Part shown: positions 38,397 through 43,884 of the stretch, piece after piece
How positions within the stretch are numbered: position 1 is the first letter of the stretch
How the letters are laid out: each line of letters opens with the position of its first letter
Assembly: GCF_000966285.1 (NCBI RefSeq)
Contig: NZ_KQ031391.1
Location: 5,580,430-5,644,429 of the forward strand
DNA from: Pseudofrankia sp. DC12
GTDB lineage: Bacteria > Actinomycetota > Actinomycetes > Frankiales > Frankiaceae
Direction of reading: 5' to 3'
DNA length: 64,000 bases
Program-made: the position numbers and the translations under genes
The notes under the pieces: model-generated
The model's database searches: none
Told to the model about the DNA's origin: nothing
The model's input: the letters and a program-made list of their open reading frames with translations, nothing else

Positions 38397-39284
38397 GTGA
38401 CCGCGCAGATCCTCGACGGCCGTGCCCAGTCGGCGGCGATCCTCGACCGGGTGCAACGGGAGGTGGCGGAGTTCGTCGCGGCCCACGGCCGGGTCCCGGT
38501 GCTGGCGACCGTGCTCGTCGGCGACGACCCGGCCTCGCACACCTACGTCCGGATGAAGGCCAACCGGTGCGCCAAGGTGGGCATGCAGTCGCGCCGCCTG
38601 GACCTGGACGCGTCGATCTCGACCGAGACGCTCGTCGAACGGATCCGGGAGCTGTCCGCCGACCCGGAGGTCGACGGCATCCTGCTGCAGCACCCGGTGC
38701 CCGACCACATCGACGAGCGGGCCGCGTTCGAGGCGATCGCCCCGGCCAAGGACGTCGACGGCGTCACCCGCACCTCGTTCGCGATGATGGCCTTCGACGA
38801 GGGCGGGTTCCACTCGGCGACCCCCGGCGGGATCATGGCCCTTCTCGACGCCTACGAGATCCCGCTGGCGGGCCGGCACGCGGTCGTCGTCGGGCGCAGC
38901 CCGATCCTGGGCAAGCCGGTCGGCATGCTGCTGCTGGCCCGCAATGCGACCGTCACCTACTGCCACTCGCGCACCACCGACCTGGCCGACCACGTCGCCC
39001 GCGCGGACGTCGTCGTCGCCGCCGTCGGCCGCCCCGCTCTCATCCGAGGCGAGTGGATCAAGCCGGGTGCGGCCGTCGTCGACGCCGGCTACGCCGACAA
39101 CAGCGGCGACGTCGAGTACGAGCCGGCCGCCGAGCGGGCCTCGTACATCACCCCGGTGCCCGGCGGCGTCGGCCCGATGACGATCGCCGTCCTGATCGAC
39201 CAGACGATGCGGGCGGCCCAGGCCCGCGAGGCTGCCCGCACGGGCCGCCCCCGCCGCACCGGCGTCGCCACCGGCACGCGGTAG
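38397..39284 (+). CDS. folD: Methylenetetrahydrofolate dehydrogenase/cyclohydrolase FolD
   Basis: 295 residues from GTG 38397, with AGGAGA 6 nt upstream. Substrate loop Y-V-R-M-K-A-N-R with the catalytic Lys, Q-H-P-V-P-D-H-I-D, NADP site V-V-G-R-S-P-I-L-G-K-P-V-G and C-terminal P-V-P-G-G-V-G-P-M-T are all present. It interconverts one-carbon folate forms for purine, formyl-Met and Ser/Gly metabolism. Full length and intact. Confidence 0.96.
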   Translation: MTAQILDGRAQSAAILDRVQREVAEFVAAHGRVPVLATVLVGDDPASHTYVRMKANRCAKVGMQSRRLDLDASISTETLVERIRELSADPEVDGILLQHPVPDHIDERAAFEAIAPAKDVDGVTRTSFAMMAFDEGGFHSATPGGIMALLDAYEIPLAGRHAVVVGRSPILGKPVGMLLLARNATVTYCHSRTTDLADHVARADVVVAAVGRPALIRGEWIKPGAAVVDAGYADNSGDVEYEPAAERASYITPVPGGVGPMTIAVLIDQTMRAAQAREAARTGRPRRTGVATGTR

Positions 39285-39371
39285 GGCTGGTCAGGGCACG
39301 TCCGCCGGGCCGGCGCGCCGGTGGCGGCCCGGACGAGGCGTATCGAGATCTATGTCCTACGATGGCGCGCT

Positions 39372-39663
39372 ATGTGCGCTGCTGCCGTCGCGGCACTGCG
39401 CAAGGGGGCGAACGTCACCCTTAGCGCGCTCGCTGACGAACTGGGTTCGGTCTCCGCGATGCTGGAGTGGGGCGTCGAGCGGGGACGGCGGCTCGACGCG
39501 GACGTAAGCGCCGTACTGATCGGCGACGACGGCAGGGCCCGGTCCAACGACGACCTCGTCTTCTACAACCAGAAGGCGGGTGGCGACGGCGCCGTCCGGC
39601 TGCGCGGCAAGGTGTCCTTCGAGGCCGAACGGTTCACCGGCTTCGCCGACGTCATCGAGGATC
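39372..39663 (+). pseudogene. TerD-family stress protein, truncated
   Basis: From ATG 39372 the frame encodes A-L-R-K-G-A-N-V-T-L, S-A-M-L-E-W-G-V-E-R-G, L-D-A-D-V-S-A-V-L-I-G-D-D-G-R and D-D-L-V-F-Y-N-Q-K, the first half of a TerD calcium-binding protein. After V-I-E-D-P-G the text changes to another protein in another frame. About half of TerD is lost. Confidence 0.75.
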
Positions 39664-40023
39664 CCGGGTCTGGCCAACGCGCCCGCGGCGGCGCAGGCCC
39701 TGATGCGGCCGCAGGGCGGCGTCGCGCGCGGCTGGCAGCCGGCCCGGCTCTTCCCCGTCGCCGGCATCGGCGGCGCGCAGGAGCAGGAACGGCGGGCGAC
39801 CTCCGCGCTGCTCGCCGTGCTGGCTGGCGTTGACGAGCTGGGCGCCGTCTTCCTCGACCGGATGCGCGGGCCGCGCGGAGCGAGGCTCACGACGTTCACC
39901 GAGGTGCCCTTCACCCTCAACGGCGGCGCATACCGTCCTGACGGCGTCATCCAGGCCGAGCGGCCAGGGCAACGGCCCTGGACCGGCCTGGTCGAGGTCA
40001 AGACCGGCAAGAACCTGCTCTGC
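39664..40023 (+). pseudogene. Ter-cluster-associated protein, truncated and out of frame
   Basis: In a different frame from the TerD piece, the sequence reads L-M-R-P-Q-G-G-V-A-R-G-W-Q-P-A-R-L-F-P-V, G-G-A-Q-E-Q-E-R-R-A-T-S-A-L-L-A-V-L and L-V-E-V-K-T-G-K-N-L-L. This matches the N-terminal half of a large uncharacterised protein often found near ter genes, with a nuclease-like V-E-V-K-T motif (recalled). It stops being recognisable at about 40023. Confidence 0.6.
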
Positions 40024-40216
40024 GTTCCCTCGGTAGGCCGCGTCGGCCATGCGGGCCAAGGCCAGCTGAACAGCGCAGGTCCTGACGGTTCTCACCCCGA
40101 TCGCGGAGCCGCTCGCCCGGTCGCGGTGGTGAACTGTTGCTGGCCAGTTTCCCGGCCAACCGTCCGGCGTCGCCTCGTCGGGGCCTCCGGCCGGCGGGAC
40201 GAGCAGGGGAGGCACC

Positions 40217-41542
40217 ATTCGCGCGGCCTCGGACCGGAACCGTTGGTCGGTCTGGTTCTCCTACTACCTGTTCGTCATCTTCGGCATCGGGCTGGGCGCG
40301 ACCGGGGTGCTGCTGCCCGCGCAGATGCGCGACTACGGGGTGGACCAGGCGGCGATCGGGGCCACCTTCGTCGCCAACTCGGTCGGGTTCGTGGTGGCCA
40401 GCGCGGTCGTCGGGCCGCTCGGCCACCGGTTCGGCATGCGGCGGATGATCCTGGCCGCCAGCGTCGTGCTCGGCGGCGCCTGCCTGCTGTCCGCCAGCCG
40501 GCCGCCGTTGGTGGTGCTCGTCCTGGCCAGCTTCGTCGTCGGTTCGGCGTCCGGCTCCTGTGAGGGCGTGCTCAACGCGTACGTCGCCGGGCTGCCGTCG
40601 GCCACGGCGGTGATGAACCGGCTGCACGCCTACTTCGGCGTCGGCGCGCTGCTCGGCCCGCTGGCCGCGGCCGGCCTGTTGACCGTGACCGGCTGGCCCG
40701 CGGTGATGATGATCATGGCAGTCCTCGCTCTGCCTCCCGCGGCCATCGGCTGGCTCACGTTCCCCGCCCGTGACGTCGATCCGCTGCTGGTCGCCCACCC
40801 CGGCGCCGTCGTCGCCAGCAGCGCGGCGGGCGCGGACGGGCCCGCGCCCGCCGCCCTGAGCCGCGGCGGCCGGCACGCGCTGCTCGCCGTCGTGCGCCAG
40901 CCCTTGGTGCTGTGGGCCGGGGCCATGCTCTGCCTCTACGTCGGCCTGGAACAGGGCCTTGGAAACTGGGGCTACACCTACCTGGTCGACGCCCGATCGG
41001 TGTCCGGCCTGCTTGCCGGCTACACCGCCAGCGGCTACTGGTTCGGCCTGACGGCCGGCCGGTTCATGGCCACGCCGGCGACCACCCGGCTGCGCCTGTC
41101 GGCGACCCAGCTGCTGTCGGTCTGCATGGTCGGGACGACGGTGAGCTGCGCGATGCTGTGGGCCGCCCCCGCCACCTCGGGCCTGGCGAGCCTTAGCTTC
41201 GTCCCGTTGGGCTTCTTCCTCGGGCCGGTCTACCCGACCACGATGTCGATCATGCACCGGCTGACTGACGCCCGCCTGGTGCCGACCGCGATCGGCGCGC
41301 TGGGCGCTGGCGGGGTCGCTGGCGGCGCCTTGTTCCCCTGGCTCATGGGCACGGTCATCCAGCTGGTCGGGCCGTGGACGCTGCCCCCGGCCGCGCTGCT
41401 GCTGGCGGTGCTGCAGTACGCGCTCTGGCGGGTGCTGGGGCGCCGGCTCGCCGGATCGGGCAGACCGGGCGGTACCGGCCCGGCCGTCGGCCTGCCGAAC
41501 GGGGAGGTCGGACGGTTCGTCCCGAGCCCGGCCGGGGACTGA
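40217..41542 (+). CDS. MFS transporter with apparent ATT start
   Basis: 441 residues if started at ATT 40217. Twelve hydrophobic segments, with a shortened motif A (G-P-L-G-H-R-F-G-M-R-R-M) between helices 2 and 3. The first helix (S-Y-Y-L-F-V-I-F-G-I-G-L-G) lies upstream of the first standard start, GTG 40307. Upstream to the stop at 40130 no ATG, GTG or TTG is in frame, but ATT 40217 has GGGGAGG 4 nt before it. Either AUU is used or a start codon has mutated. Substrate unknown; weak likeness to sugar (FucP-like) porters. Confidence 0.75.
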   Translation: MRAASDRNRWSVWFSYYLFVIFGIGLGATGVLLPAQMRDYGVDQAAIGATFVANSVGFVVASAVVGPLGHRFGMRRMILAASVVLGGACLLSASRPPLVVLVLASFVVGSASGSCEGVLNAYVAGLPSATAVMNRLHAYFGVGALLGPLAAAGLLTVTGWPAVMMIMAVLALPPAAIGWLTFPARDVDPLLVAHPGAVVASSAAGADGPAPAALSRGGRHALLAVVRQPLVLWAGAMLCLYVGLEQGLGNWGYTYLVDARSVSGLLAGYTASGYWFGLTAGRFMATPATTRLRLSATQLLSVCMVGTTVSCAMLWAAPATSGLASLSFVPLGFFLGPVYPTTMSIMHRLTDARLVPTAIGALGAGGVAGGALFPWLMGTVIQLVGPWTLPPAALLLAVLQYALWRVLGRRLAGSGRPGGTGPAVGLPNGEVGRFVPSPAGD

Positions 41543-41545
41543 CCA

Positions 41546-42505
41546 TCACCCGGCGGGCACGATCTCCGGCCGGCCGGTCGGCTTCGGGTCGGCCGCGACC
41601 CGGCGGCGGTAGGCGGACGGGGTCTCGCCCACCCGCAGGGCGAAGGCCCGGGCGAAGGCGCTGACGTTCTCGAAGCCGACCGCGAGGGACACGTCCAGCA
41701 CCGACGGCCCCGGCTCGGCGAGCAGCGCCATCGCTCGCAACAGCCGCGCCTGCAGCAGATAGGCCCGCCAGGACAGGCCCAGCTCGGCGGCGAACTGGCG
41801 GCGCAGCGTCCGCTCGGACACCCCGATCGCCCGGCTCACCGTGGCCGCGGTGACGGTGTCGAGGTTCTCCCTGGTGTAAGCCATCGCCGCCGCGACGAGC
41901 GGGTCCGCCGAGGTCGGCAGGCTCAGCGGGGCCTCGTGGTCGAGCGCCTCGGCCACCAGGTGCGCGAGCGTGCGGAAGAAGCCGTCGGAGACGTCGTCAC
42001 TCTCGGTCCGCGCGATCGGCCAGCGCAGCGCGTAGAGCATCATCTCGCGGATCAGTGGCGAGACCGCGACGATCCGGGCCCGGTCGCCGGGCCGGGGGAC
42101 GATGCGTGGGTCGAACATCACCGACACCGTCCGCACCGCCGTGTTCATCGTCGCCTGGTGCGAGAGGCCGGCCGGGAGCCAGGCGGCCTGCTGCGGCGGC
42201 AGCAGGTAGCGGCCGCCGGAGGTCTCGACCTCGACGACGCCGGAGACGGCGTACTCGATCTGGTGCAGGTCGTGCGAGTGCCAGGGGGTGACCAGGCGCT
42301 GGCCCTCGTACAGGTAGCCGCCGCCGAGAGCCTCGCCGCCGCGGCGCAGGTCGATCGCGCCGACGTGGACGCCGATCAGGTCGAGCTCGCTGGGGAGCGT
42401 GGCCCCGCTGAATCGCAGCGTTCCGGTGTGGCCTGGCACAGTGACGGCCACCGCGAGGTTGGCCGTTTCTGCAGGGTTCCTGGCCGAACGTGCGGAGACG
42501 GACAT
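41546..42505 (-). CDS. AraC-family transcriptional regulator
   Basis: 319 residues from ATG 42505 (frame open to 42577). An N-terminal cupin-like sensing domain (W-H-S-H-D-L-H-Q-I-E-Y, G-G-R-Y-L-L-P-P-Q-Q-A-A-W-L-P) precedes two C-terminal helix-turn-helix motifs: V-S-R-A-I-G-V-S-E-R-T-L-R-R-Q-F and V-S-L-A-V-G-F-E-N-V-S-A-F-A-R-A-F. Divergent from the amidohydrolase gene with a 116-nt gap, so it probably controls that gene. Its stop lies 4 nt from the MFS stop. Confidence 0.92.
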   Translation of the reverse strand: MSVSARSARNPAETANLAVAVTVPGHTGTLRFSGATLPSELDLIGVHVGAIDLRRGGEALGGGYLYEGQRLVTPWHSHDLHQIEYAVSGVVEVETSGGRYLLPPQQAAWLPAGLSHQATMNTAVRTVSVMFDPRIVPRPGDRARIVAVSPLIREMMLYALRWPIARTESDDVSDGFFRTLAHLVAEALDHEAPLSLPTSADPLVAAAMAYTRENLDTVTAATVSRAIGVSERTLRRQFAAELGLSWRAYLLQARLLRAMALLAEPGPSVLDVSLAVGFENVSAFARAFALRVGETPSAYRRRVAADPKPTGRPEIVPAG

Positions 42506-42621
42506 GGCTGGCCAGCGTACAACTAGGTGGGAGGTCCAGCCAACACCGTGATCCAGGCCGCGGAGGGGCTGACCCACGAGGCACTCGTACGGCCCGGCCG
42601 CGCCCGAGGAGGAACTCCCAG

Positions 42622-43884
42622 ATGAACATCGAGGACATGGTCCTGGTGAGCATCGACGACCACGTCGTCGAGCCGCCCGACATGTTCGCCGGCCGTGTGC
42701 CGGCGAAGTGGGCCGACCTTGCGCCCCAGGTGGCCAAGGGCGAGGACGGGATCGAGCGGTGGATCTACCGCGGCCGCCCGACCGGCGTCTCCGGCCTGAA
42801 CGCCGTCGTCTCCTGGCCCGCCGAGGAGTGGGACAAGAACCCGGCGAGCTTCGCCGAGATGCGCCCGGGCGCCTACGACATCCACGACCGGGTCCGCGAC
42901 ATGGACCGCAACGGCATCCTCGCGTCGATGTGCTTCCCGACGTTCACGGGCTTCTCCGCTGGCCATCTCACCCATTACAAGGACGAGATCACCGTCGCGA
43001 TGATCGAGGCCTACAACGACTGGCACATCGACGGGTGGGCGGCCTCCTGCCCGGGCCGGTTCATCCCGATCGCGCTCGTGCCGACCTGGGACCCGCAGCT
43101 GATGGTGGCCGAGATCAAGCGGGTGGCGGCCAAGGGCTGCCGGGCGGTCACCATGCCCGAGCAGCCCCACATCGAAGGCCTGCCGAGCTACCACGACCTC
43201 AACTACTGGGGCCCCGTCTTCCAGGCGATGTCGGACACCGGCCTGGTGTGGTGCCTGCACATCGGCCAGGGCTTCGGCGCCATCAAGGGCGCCCCGGACG
43301 CGCCGATCGACAACCTGATCATCCTCGCCTGCCAGATCTCGGCGCTGGCCGCTCAGGACGTCCTGTGGGGCCCGGCGATGCGCACCTACCCGGACCTGAA
43401 GTTCGCCTTCTCCGAGGGTGGCATCGGCTGGATCCCGTTCTACCTGGACCGCTGCGACCGGCATTACACCAACCAGCGCTGGCTGCGCCGCGACTTCGGC
43501 GGAAAGCTGCCCAGCGAGGTGTTCCGCGAGCACACGCTGGCCTGCTACGTCACCGACCCGACGGCGCTGAAGCTGCGCAACGAGATCGGCATCGACAACA
43601 TCGCCTGGGAGTGCGACTACCCGCACTCCGACTCGATCTGGCCGACCGCTCCCGAGTTCGTTCTGAACGAGCTGAACAACGCCGGGGCGGCGGACTCGGA
43701 GATCGACAAGATCACCTGGCAGAACGCCAGCCGGTTCTTCAACTGGGACCCGTTCGCGGTGATCCCGAAGGAGAAGGCGACGGTCGGGGCCCTGCGGTCG
43801 ACCGCGATGGACGTTGAGACGGCCGTCGTGCCCCGTGCCGAGTGGGCCCGCCGCTACGCCGAGAAGCACGGCGCCACCGCCTGA
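42622..43884 (+). CDS. Amidohydrolase-2 family (ACMSD-like) metal enzyme
   Basis: 420 residues from ATG 42622, with GAGGAGGAA upstream. TIM-barrel metal-site features: S-I-D-D-H-V-V-E-P near the N-terminus, C-L-H-I-G-Q-G in the middle and W-E-C-D-Y-P-H-S-D-S toward the end (conserved Asp and His). Family members decarboxylate or hydrolyse aromatic and related acids (ACMSD, gamma-resorcylate decarboxylase). Substrate unknown; an AraC regulator is divergent. The stop codon is inside a 14-nt tandem repeat. Confidence 0.88.
   Translation: MNIEDMVLVSIDDHVVEPPDMFAGRVPAKWADLAPQVAKGEDGIERWIYRGRPTGVSGLNAVVSWPAEEWDKNPASFAEMRPGAYDIHDRVRDMDRNGILASMCFPTFTGFSAGHLTHYKDEITVAMIEAYNDWHIDGWAASCPGRFIPIALVPTWDPQLMVAEIKRVAAKGCRAVTMPEQPHIEGLPSYHDLNYWGPVFQAMSDTGLVWCLHIGQGFGAIKGAPDAPIDNLIILACQISALAAQDVLWGPAMRTYPDLKFAFSEGGIGWIPFYLDRCDRHYTNQRWLRRDFGGKLPSEVFREHTLACYVTDPTALKLRNEIGIDNIAWECDYPHSDSIWPTAPEFVLNELNNAGAADSEIDKITWQNASRFFNWDPFAVIPKEKATVGALRSTAMDVETAVVPRAEWARRYAEKHGATA

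What the first reader, a model, noticed from the sequence alone, without database searches (positions are those of the whole stretch)
40208..40309. MFS transporter that appears to start at ATT
The first membrane helix is encoded before any ATG, GTG or TTG. ATT at 40217 has an ideal GGGGAGG 4 nt upstream, and no standard start is in frame back to the stop at 40130. AUU starts are known but rare (infC). Alternatively this is a recently mutated ATG.
Basis: partly seen in the sequence, partly recalled or inferred. Interest (0 to 1): 0.55.

Follow-up and report, generated by a model that had tools for sequence, protein, structure and literature searches.

The report
Transporter gene starting at AUU
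A membrane transporter gene in a Frankia-type soil bacterium begins with the rare start codon AUU instead of AUG, GUG or UUG, and the same odd start is kept in related species, so it is neither a sequencing error nor a fresh mutation and probably holds protein output down.

Summary
The MFS gene at 40217-41542 (+) has no ATG, GTG or TTG in frame from the stop at 40130 to 40307, inside membrane helix 1. ATT at 40217 follows GGGGAGG by 4 nt. Orthologues decide the rest: G001 (93% identity) and Frankia sp. AgB1.9 (92%) have the same ATT and Shine-Dalgarno (SD) sequence, with one-base indels just upstream that break every upstream frame. So this is neither a sequencing error nor a recent mutation. 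All seven syntenic orthologues in the genus (MFS, AraC regulator, amidohydrolase; down to about 50% identity) have ATT (6) or ATA (1) behind an SD; three of the seven also offer another plausible start. Homologues in another family start with GTG at the aligned place. In a survey of 325 gene pairs over 1.2 Mb, this gene ranks first for coding sequence ahead of its first standard start. The genus's infC starts at ATC (8 of 8), so IF3 start-codon control is probably present. Best reading: a genuine AUU start, helped by a strong SD, that keeps the transporter low and perhaps IF3-sensitive. This is a new member of a known kind; expression was not tested.

The parts
40128..40152 (+). imperfect inverted repeat GGTGAACT-n10-AGTTTCC, a candidate operator or promoter element
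   Evidence: one match in the window, 0 expected (the pattern was taken from this very site, so the count only shows that it is unique); similar sequence aligns upstream of 6 of 7 orthologues, not clearly G003
40130..40132 (+). in-frame TGA stop that bounds the reading frame upstream
40206..40212 (+). Shine-Dalgarno sequence GGGGAGG
   Evidence: -11.9 kcal/mol against the 16S tail; 12 of 86 reference starts at least as strong
40217..40219 (+). AUU start codon
   Evidence: ATT in own, G001, AgB1.9, G003, G004, G005 and ATA in G006, each behind an SD
40217..41542 (+). MFS transporter gene, 441 aa
   Evidence: Pfam MFS_1 E 2.9e-29; dN/dS about 0.18-0.21 against G001 and AgB1.9
40307..40309 (+). 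first standard start codon in frame (GTG), inside membrane helix 1; judged not the start
   Evidence: weak SD -4.8 kcal/mol; conserved coding sequence upstream of it
41546..42943 (-). convergent AraC-family regulator, frame from stop to stop, syntenic in 7 of 7 orthologous loci
   Evidence: Pfam HTH_18, AraC_binding; synteny
42445..43884 (+). Amidohydro_2 family protein, frame from stop to stop, next in the syntenic block
   Evidence: Pfam E 5.5e-27; synteny

Best explanation
Translation of the MFS transporter starts at AUU 40217. The strong SD GGGGAGG places the ribosome, and the initiator tRNA reads AUU with a third-position mismatch, giving Met. Shown here: no standard start is available, the ATT and SD are conserved, and the coding constraint begins at or next to ATT. 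Inferred: because IF3 destabilises initiation at AUU-type codons, the transporter is made at a low, capped level and may rise when IF3 activity falls. The conservation suggests that this low yield is selected rather than accidental. The adjacent AraC regulator probably controls transcription (inferred from synteny only).
For: (1) No ATG/GTG/TTG in frame between stop 40130 and GTG 40307, nor in the 81 open codons upstream of ATT in G001. (2) ATT and SD identical in position in G001 and AgB1.9, with 1-nt indels just upstream (in the SD G-run, and at about 40148-40150) that put upstream sequence in different frames, and none in the 330 nt aligned after ATT. (3) ATT or ATA at the corresponding place in 7 of 7 syntenic orthologues. 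(4) Five homologues in another family start with GTG within one residue of the aligned position, so the gene's start is where ATT lies. (5) Codon signal of the 20 codons before the first standard start is the strongest of 97 scorable genes: 0.85 per codon, next 0.49 and 0.33. (6) Strong SD at the ATT. (7) Purifying selection on the protein, dN/dS about 0.18-0.21. (8) infC of this genus starts at ATC in 8 of 8 genomes, the signature of IF3 autocontrol. (9) Precedent: S. aureus cvfC1 (AUU) and ccpN (AUA), conserved, with extended SDs and about 10% of AUG yield (PMC13009471, passages); Streptomyces sigR (GTC), repressed by IF3 (PMC5472188, passages).
Against: No expression or peptide data. In three of the seven orthologues another start is plausible: G005 has GTG 10 codons after ATT with a stronger SD (-15.5 against -11.4); G004 has the same GTG (-9.5 against -10.8); G003 has CTG as the next codon and TTG 17 codons upstream (-7.7). 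AgB1.9 has GTG GTG 29-30 codons upstream (SD -5.5 for the nearer), in a frame not shared by its neighbours. Own, G001 and AgB1.9 are close relatives and not three independent cases: ordinary ATT Ile codons stay ATT between own and G001 in 50 of 138. IF3 sensitivity and low yield are inferred, not measured.
Confidence: 0.83

Rival explanations
1. The true start is a downstream codon (CTG 40268, CTG 40292, GTG 40307 or ATG 40325) and the sequence from ATT to there is untranslated.
For: GTG 40307 and ATG 40325 are standard starts.
Against: Starting at 40307 or 40325 removes membrane helix 1; the 20 codons before GTG 40307 are coding-like and 100% identical in amino acids to G001, with changes only at third positions; weak SDs; homologues with GTG starts begin upstream of helix 1.
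Confidence: 0.05
2. Translation starts upstream in another frame, for instance the conserved GTGGTGAAC upstream of 40136, and reaches the MFS frame by frameshifting.
For: GTGGTGAAC is conserved in own, G001 and AgB1.9, and is in frame with the MFS in AgB1.9.
Against: Indels put this GTG in different frames relative to the MFS in the three species; upstream substitutions are spread evenly over codon positions (17, 18, 14); its SD in AgB1.9 is weak (-5.5); I saw no shared slippery site, by eye.
Confidence: 0.04
3. The ATT start is real but a tolerated accident: a nearly neutral loss of GTG or ATG in the ancestor of the genus, kept because a strong SD compensates, with no regulatory role.
For: Homologues outside the genus use GTG; AUU is one base from AUG; two other non-standard starts (both CTG candidates) appear among 325 surveyed pairs.
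Against: Kept as ATT or ATA across orthologues down to about 50% protein identity, although start codons tend to change back to AUG (PMC5622118, passages). That does not exclude neutrality, and the GTG near the ATT in G004 and G005 could be such a return.
Confidence: 0.35
4. Sequencing error or recent mutation of ATG.
For: A single-base difference (ATT against ATG).
Against: The same ATT in independently sequenced G001 and AgB1.9, ATT in three more distant genomes and ATA in one.
Confidence: 0.01

Closest known systems
infC (IF3) AUU/AUC start
   Same: a non-standard AUN start behind an SD; in this genus infC itself starts at ATC
   Different: infC is autoregulated by its own product; an MFS transporter has no such loop
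Staphylococcus aureus cvfC1 (AUU) and ccpN (AUA)
   Same: conserved AUU/AUA starts with strong extended SDs (PMC13009471, passages); both codons occur among the orthologues here
   Different: regulatory or small proteins in a low-GC Firmicute, shown by Ribo-Ret and reporters; here a transporter in a high-GC actinobacterium, sequence evidence only
Streptomyces sigR GTC start
   Same: actinobacterial, genus-wide conserved non-standard start that gene finders miss; shown to be repressed by IF3 (PMC5472188, passages)
   Different: codon GTC, a sigma factor balanced against its anti-sigma factor
E. coli pcnB AUU start
   Same: AUU limits yield (seen only as a title in the reference list of PMC13009471)
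   Different: poly(A) polymerase (recalled), E. coli

Membership tests
genes with an IF3-discriminated non-standard (AUN) start | no standard start codon available at the start of the coding region | tested here: met
   own and G001 have none at all between the upstream stop and helix 1
genes with an IF3-discriminated non-standard (AUN) start | AUU/AUC/AUA at the start position, conserved in orthologues | tested here: met
   ATT 6 and ATA 1 of 7 syntenic orthologues; three of these also have other plausible starts
genes with an IF3-discriminated non-standard (AUN) start | strong SD compensating the weak codon | tested here: met
   -10.2 to -12.2 kcal/mol at 7 of 7 sites; reference median -7.35
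genes with an IF3-discriminated non-standard (AUN) start | initiation at the codon shown by peptide, profiling or reporter | not testable with these tools
   none available
genes with an IF3-discriminated non-standard (AUN) start | repression by IF3 | not testable with these tools
   only indirect: infC ATC start in 8 of 8 genomes of the genus
Major facilitator superfamily (MFS_1) | Pfam MFS_1 match above the gathering score | tested here: met
   102.5 bits, cut-off 33.4; no NCBIfam model reaches its cut-off, so the substrate is unassigned

The most novel reading that the evidence does not exclude
A transporter whose translation is set by IF3: an AUU start kept through the history of the genus couples transport through this MFS to the cell's initiation-factor state, a post-transcriptional layer on top of the AraC regulator, making it a non-autoregulatory IF3-controlled transporter gene in actinobacteria.
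Probability: 0.3. Interest if true: 0.6.

Novelty: new member of a known kind. Interest (0 to 1): 0.42.

Why it matters
Few bacterial genes with AUU starts are documented, and gene finders that allow only ATG, GTG and TTG would cut this transporter inside its first membrane helix, or extend it wrongly, in several species of the genus. It offers a clean actinobacterial case, with a genus-wide comparison set that includes ATA and nearby GTG variants, to test whether IF3 governs genes other than its own and whether weak starts are selected to keep membrane proteins low.

Tried and rejected
Leader RNA: no Rfam match up to E 1 in 39200-41600; the leader folds no better than shuffles (z 0.23). A helix pairing the start codon with GGTGGTG upstream appears in own, G001 and AgB1.9, is weak in G004 and absent in G003, G005 and G006, so it is not counted as a conserved switch.

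Sigma-70-like promoter or terminator at 40000-40330: none. Solved-structure search of the MFS by sequence: no match. NCBIfam gives only sub-cut-off matches (best PcaK-like, 39.7 bits against a cut-off of 770), so no substrate is claimed.

Orthologue neutrality: ordinary ATT codons are conserved in 50 of 138 between own and G001, so ATT identity among the three nearest species alone is weak evidence; the argument rests on the missing alternatives and on the distant orthologues.

Survey: a first version was swamped by shadow reading frames and 5' leaders; a second used substitution position; only the third, 325 pairs of which 97 had at least 12 aligned codons before the first standard start, is used. 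I read the top 45 of the 97 rows and four genes in detail. Genes with a spurious in-frame standard start upstream are missed by this test.

Rows dropped or misread: several loci on the minus strand were read in the wrong orientation and were replaced; G007 (L014, GTG start, contig end, synteny not testable) is not counted among the seven; L043 and L053 were misread and were corrected; other-family homologues L044-L046 have standard starts (ATG or GTG) but less clear positions and are not among the five counted; L047 (half-length match) was not read.

Full report
WHAT IS THERE. The window lies in a 6.88-Mb genome in one contig (G000), and the closest named relative found is Frankia sp. AgB1.9 (Actinomycetota, Frankiaceae). 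From recall only, the sizes of G000 and G001 fit Frankia sp. DC12 and Frankia inefficax EuI1c. At 40217-41542 (+) an MFS transporter of 441 aa is coded (Pfam MFS_1, E 2.9e-29). The in-frame stop is TGA 40130-40132; the first ATG, GTG or TTG is GTG 40307. ATT 40217 follows GGGGAGG (40206-40212) by CACC.

NOT AN ERROR, NOT RECENT. G001 (93% identity) and AgB1.9 (92%; the same contig as G002, judged by its length, 35,528 bases) carry the same ATT and SD. In the alignment of the three one-base indels fall in the G-run of the SD and at about 40148-40150; no indel falls in the 330 nt aligned after ATT. Upstream substitutions are evenly spread over codon positions (17, 18 and 14 in 200 nt); in the first 30 codons there are 4, 0 and 3, and later in the gene they fall on third positions (2, 2 and 15). 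Coding constraint therefore begins at or next to ATT. The gene is under purifying selection (dN 0.040-0.043, dS 0.21-0.22).

WIDER ORTHOLOGUES. The genus has 8 held genomes, all with a match. Seven (own, G001-G006) keep the block MFS, convergent AraC regulator, amidohydrolase (the G004 gene is split over two contig ends, with the AraC and amidohydrolase matches on the contig that holds its 3' part). At the aligned place they read ATT (own, G001, G002 = AgB1.9, G003, G004, G005) or ATA (G006), each behind an SD of -10.2 to -12.2 kcal/mol; in G003 the automatic alignment is off by 3 nt at this point. The eighth, G007, starts with GTG and sits at a contig end. In class-wide sampling 17 of 393 genomes have a match at E 1e-40; five readable homologues of another family (L015, L040, L041, L042, L043) start with GTG followed by Ser-Ala-Leu-Arg-Arg, and the two of them that I aligned begin within one residue of the ATT. 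The non-standard start thus looks specific to the genus and derived from a standard start.

RESULTS AGAINST. G005 and G004 have a GTG 10 codons after the ATT; in G005 its SD is stronger than that of ATT (-15.5 against -11.4), in G004 a little weaker (-9.5 against -10.8). G003 has CTG right after the ATT and a TTG 17 codons upstream (-7.7). AgB1.9 has two GTG 29-30 codons upstream (-5.5 for the nearer). So only own and G001 have no standard start at all; G006 has none between about 40 codons upstream and helix 1, and AgB1.9 only a weakly placed one. Ordinary ATT codons stay ATT between own and G001 in 50 of 138 cases, so identity among close relatives alone proves little.

HOW UNUSUAL. I compared 1.2 Mb of own with 1.2 Mb of G001. 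Of 325 orthologous coding pairs, 97 have at least 12 aligned codons before the first standard start in own; most are conserved 5' leaders or shadow frames by eye. Ranked by codon log-likelihood of the 20 codons before the first standard start, the MFS gene is first (0.85 per codon; next 0.49 and 0.33). Reading the top 45 rows and four genes in detail, two others look non-standard: a DEAD-box helicase and an HExxH membrane protein (both named by eye), with CTG candidates. Non-standard starts are thus rare (about 1% here, a rough count by eye), and an AUN start is rarer still.

MECHANISM. [quoted passage not shown] infC uses ATT in E. coli and ATC in Streptomyces, and sigR of Streptomyces uses GTC and is repressed by IF3 (PMC5472188, passages read). 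S. aureus cvfC1 (AUU) and ccpN (AUA) have conserved non-standard starts with extended SDs and about 10% of AUG yield (PMC13009471, passages read). In this genus infC starts at ATC in 8 of 8 genomes. I infer that the AUU of the MFS gene lowers its yield and makes it potentially IF3-sensitive; none of this was measured. The leader shows no conserved RNA switch. An imperfect inverted repeat at 40128-40152, with similar sequence in most orthologues, may be the operator or promoter; this is inference.

LITERATURE. Searches for AUU or ATT start codons with infC, pcnB, Frankia, Streptomyces, MFS and transporter listed no report of an AUU-start transporter in Frankia; they cover the open-access library only. 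Two papers listed were seen as listings only. PMC11445065 (passages) treats GTG against ATG in lacI and was not used further.

VERDICT. A real, conserved AUU start with a strong SD; a new member of a known kind; mechanism beyond initiation inferred.

Noticed in passing
G000:C1:6013860-6015452 (-), in L105: DEAD-box RNA helicase (by eye) with no ATG, GTG or TTG in frame before codon 117; a CTG with GAGGG upstream is the likely start, identical in G001.
   Followed up: partly
G000:C1:5719972-5720679 (+), in L070: HExxH membrane protein (M50-like by eye) with the first standard start at codon 22; CTG behind AGGGGG is the candidate start, conserved in G001.
   Followed up: partly
window 39285-40040: A TerD-domain remnant (Pfam TerD E 7.7e-15) with broken frames lies between folD and the MFS gene in this genome; in G001 only 170 nt separate folD and the ATT, against 933 nt here.
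   Followed up: partly
G000:C1:1045220-1045429 (-), L049, and relatives L048-L055: infC of the genus starts at ATC behind GGAGGAAACCAG in 8 of 8 genomes.
   Followed up: yes
window 40128-40152: Imperfect inverted repeat GGTGAACT-n10-AGTTTCC with similar sequence upstream of most orthologues, a possible operator of the neighbouring AraC regulator.
   Followed up: partly
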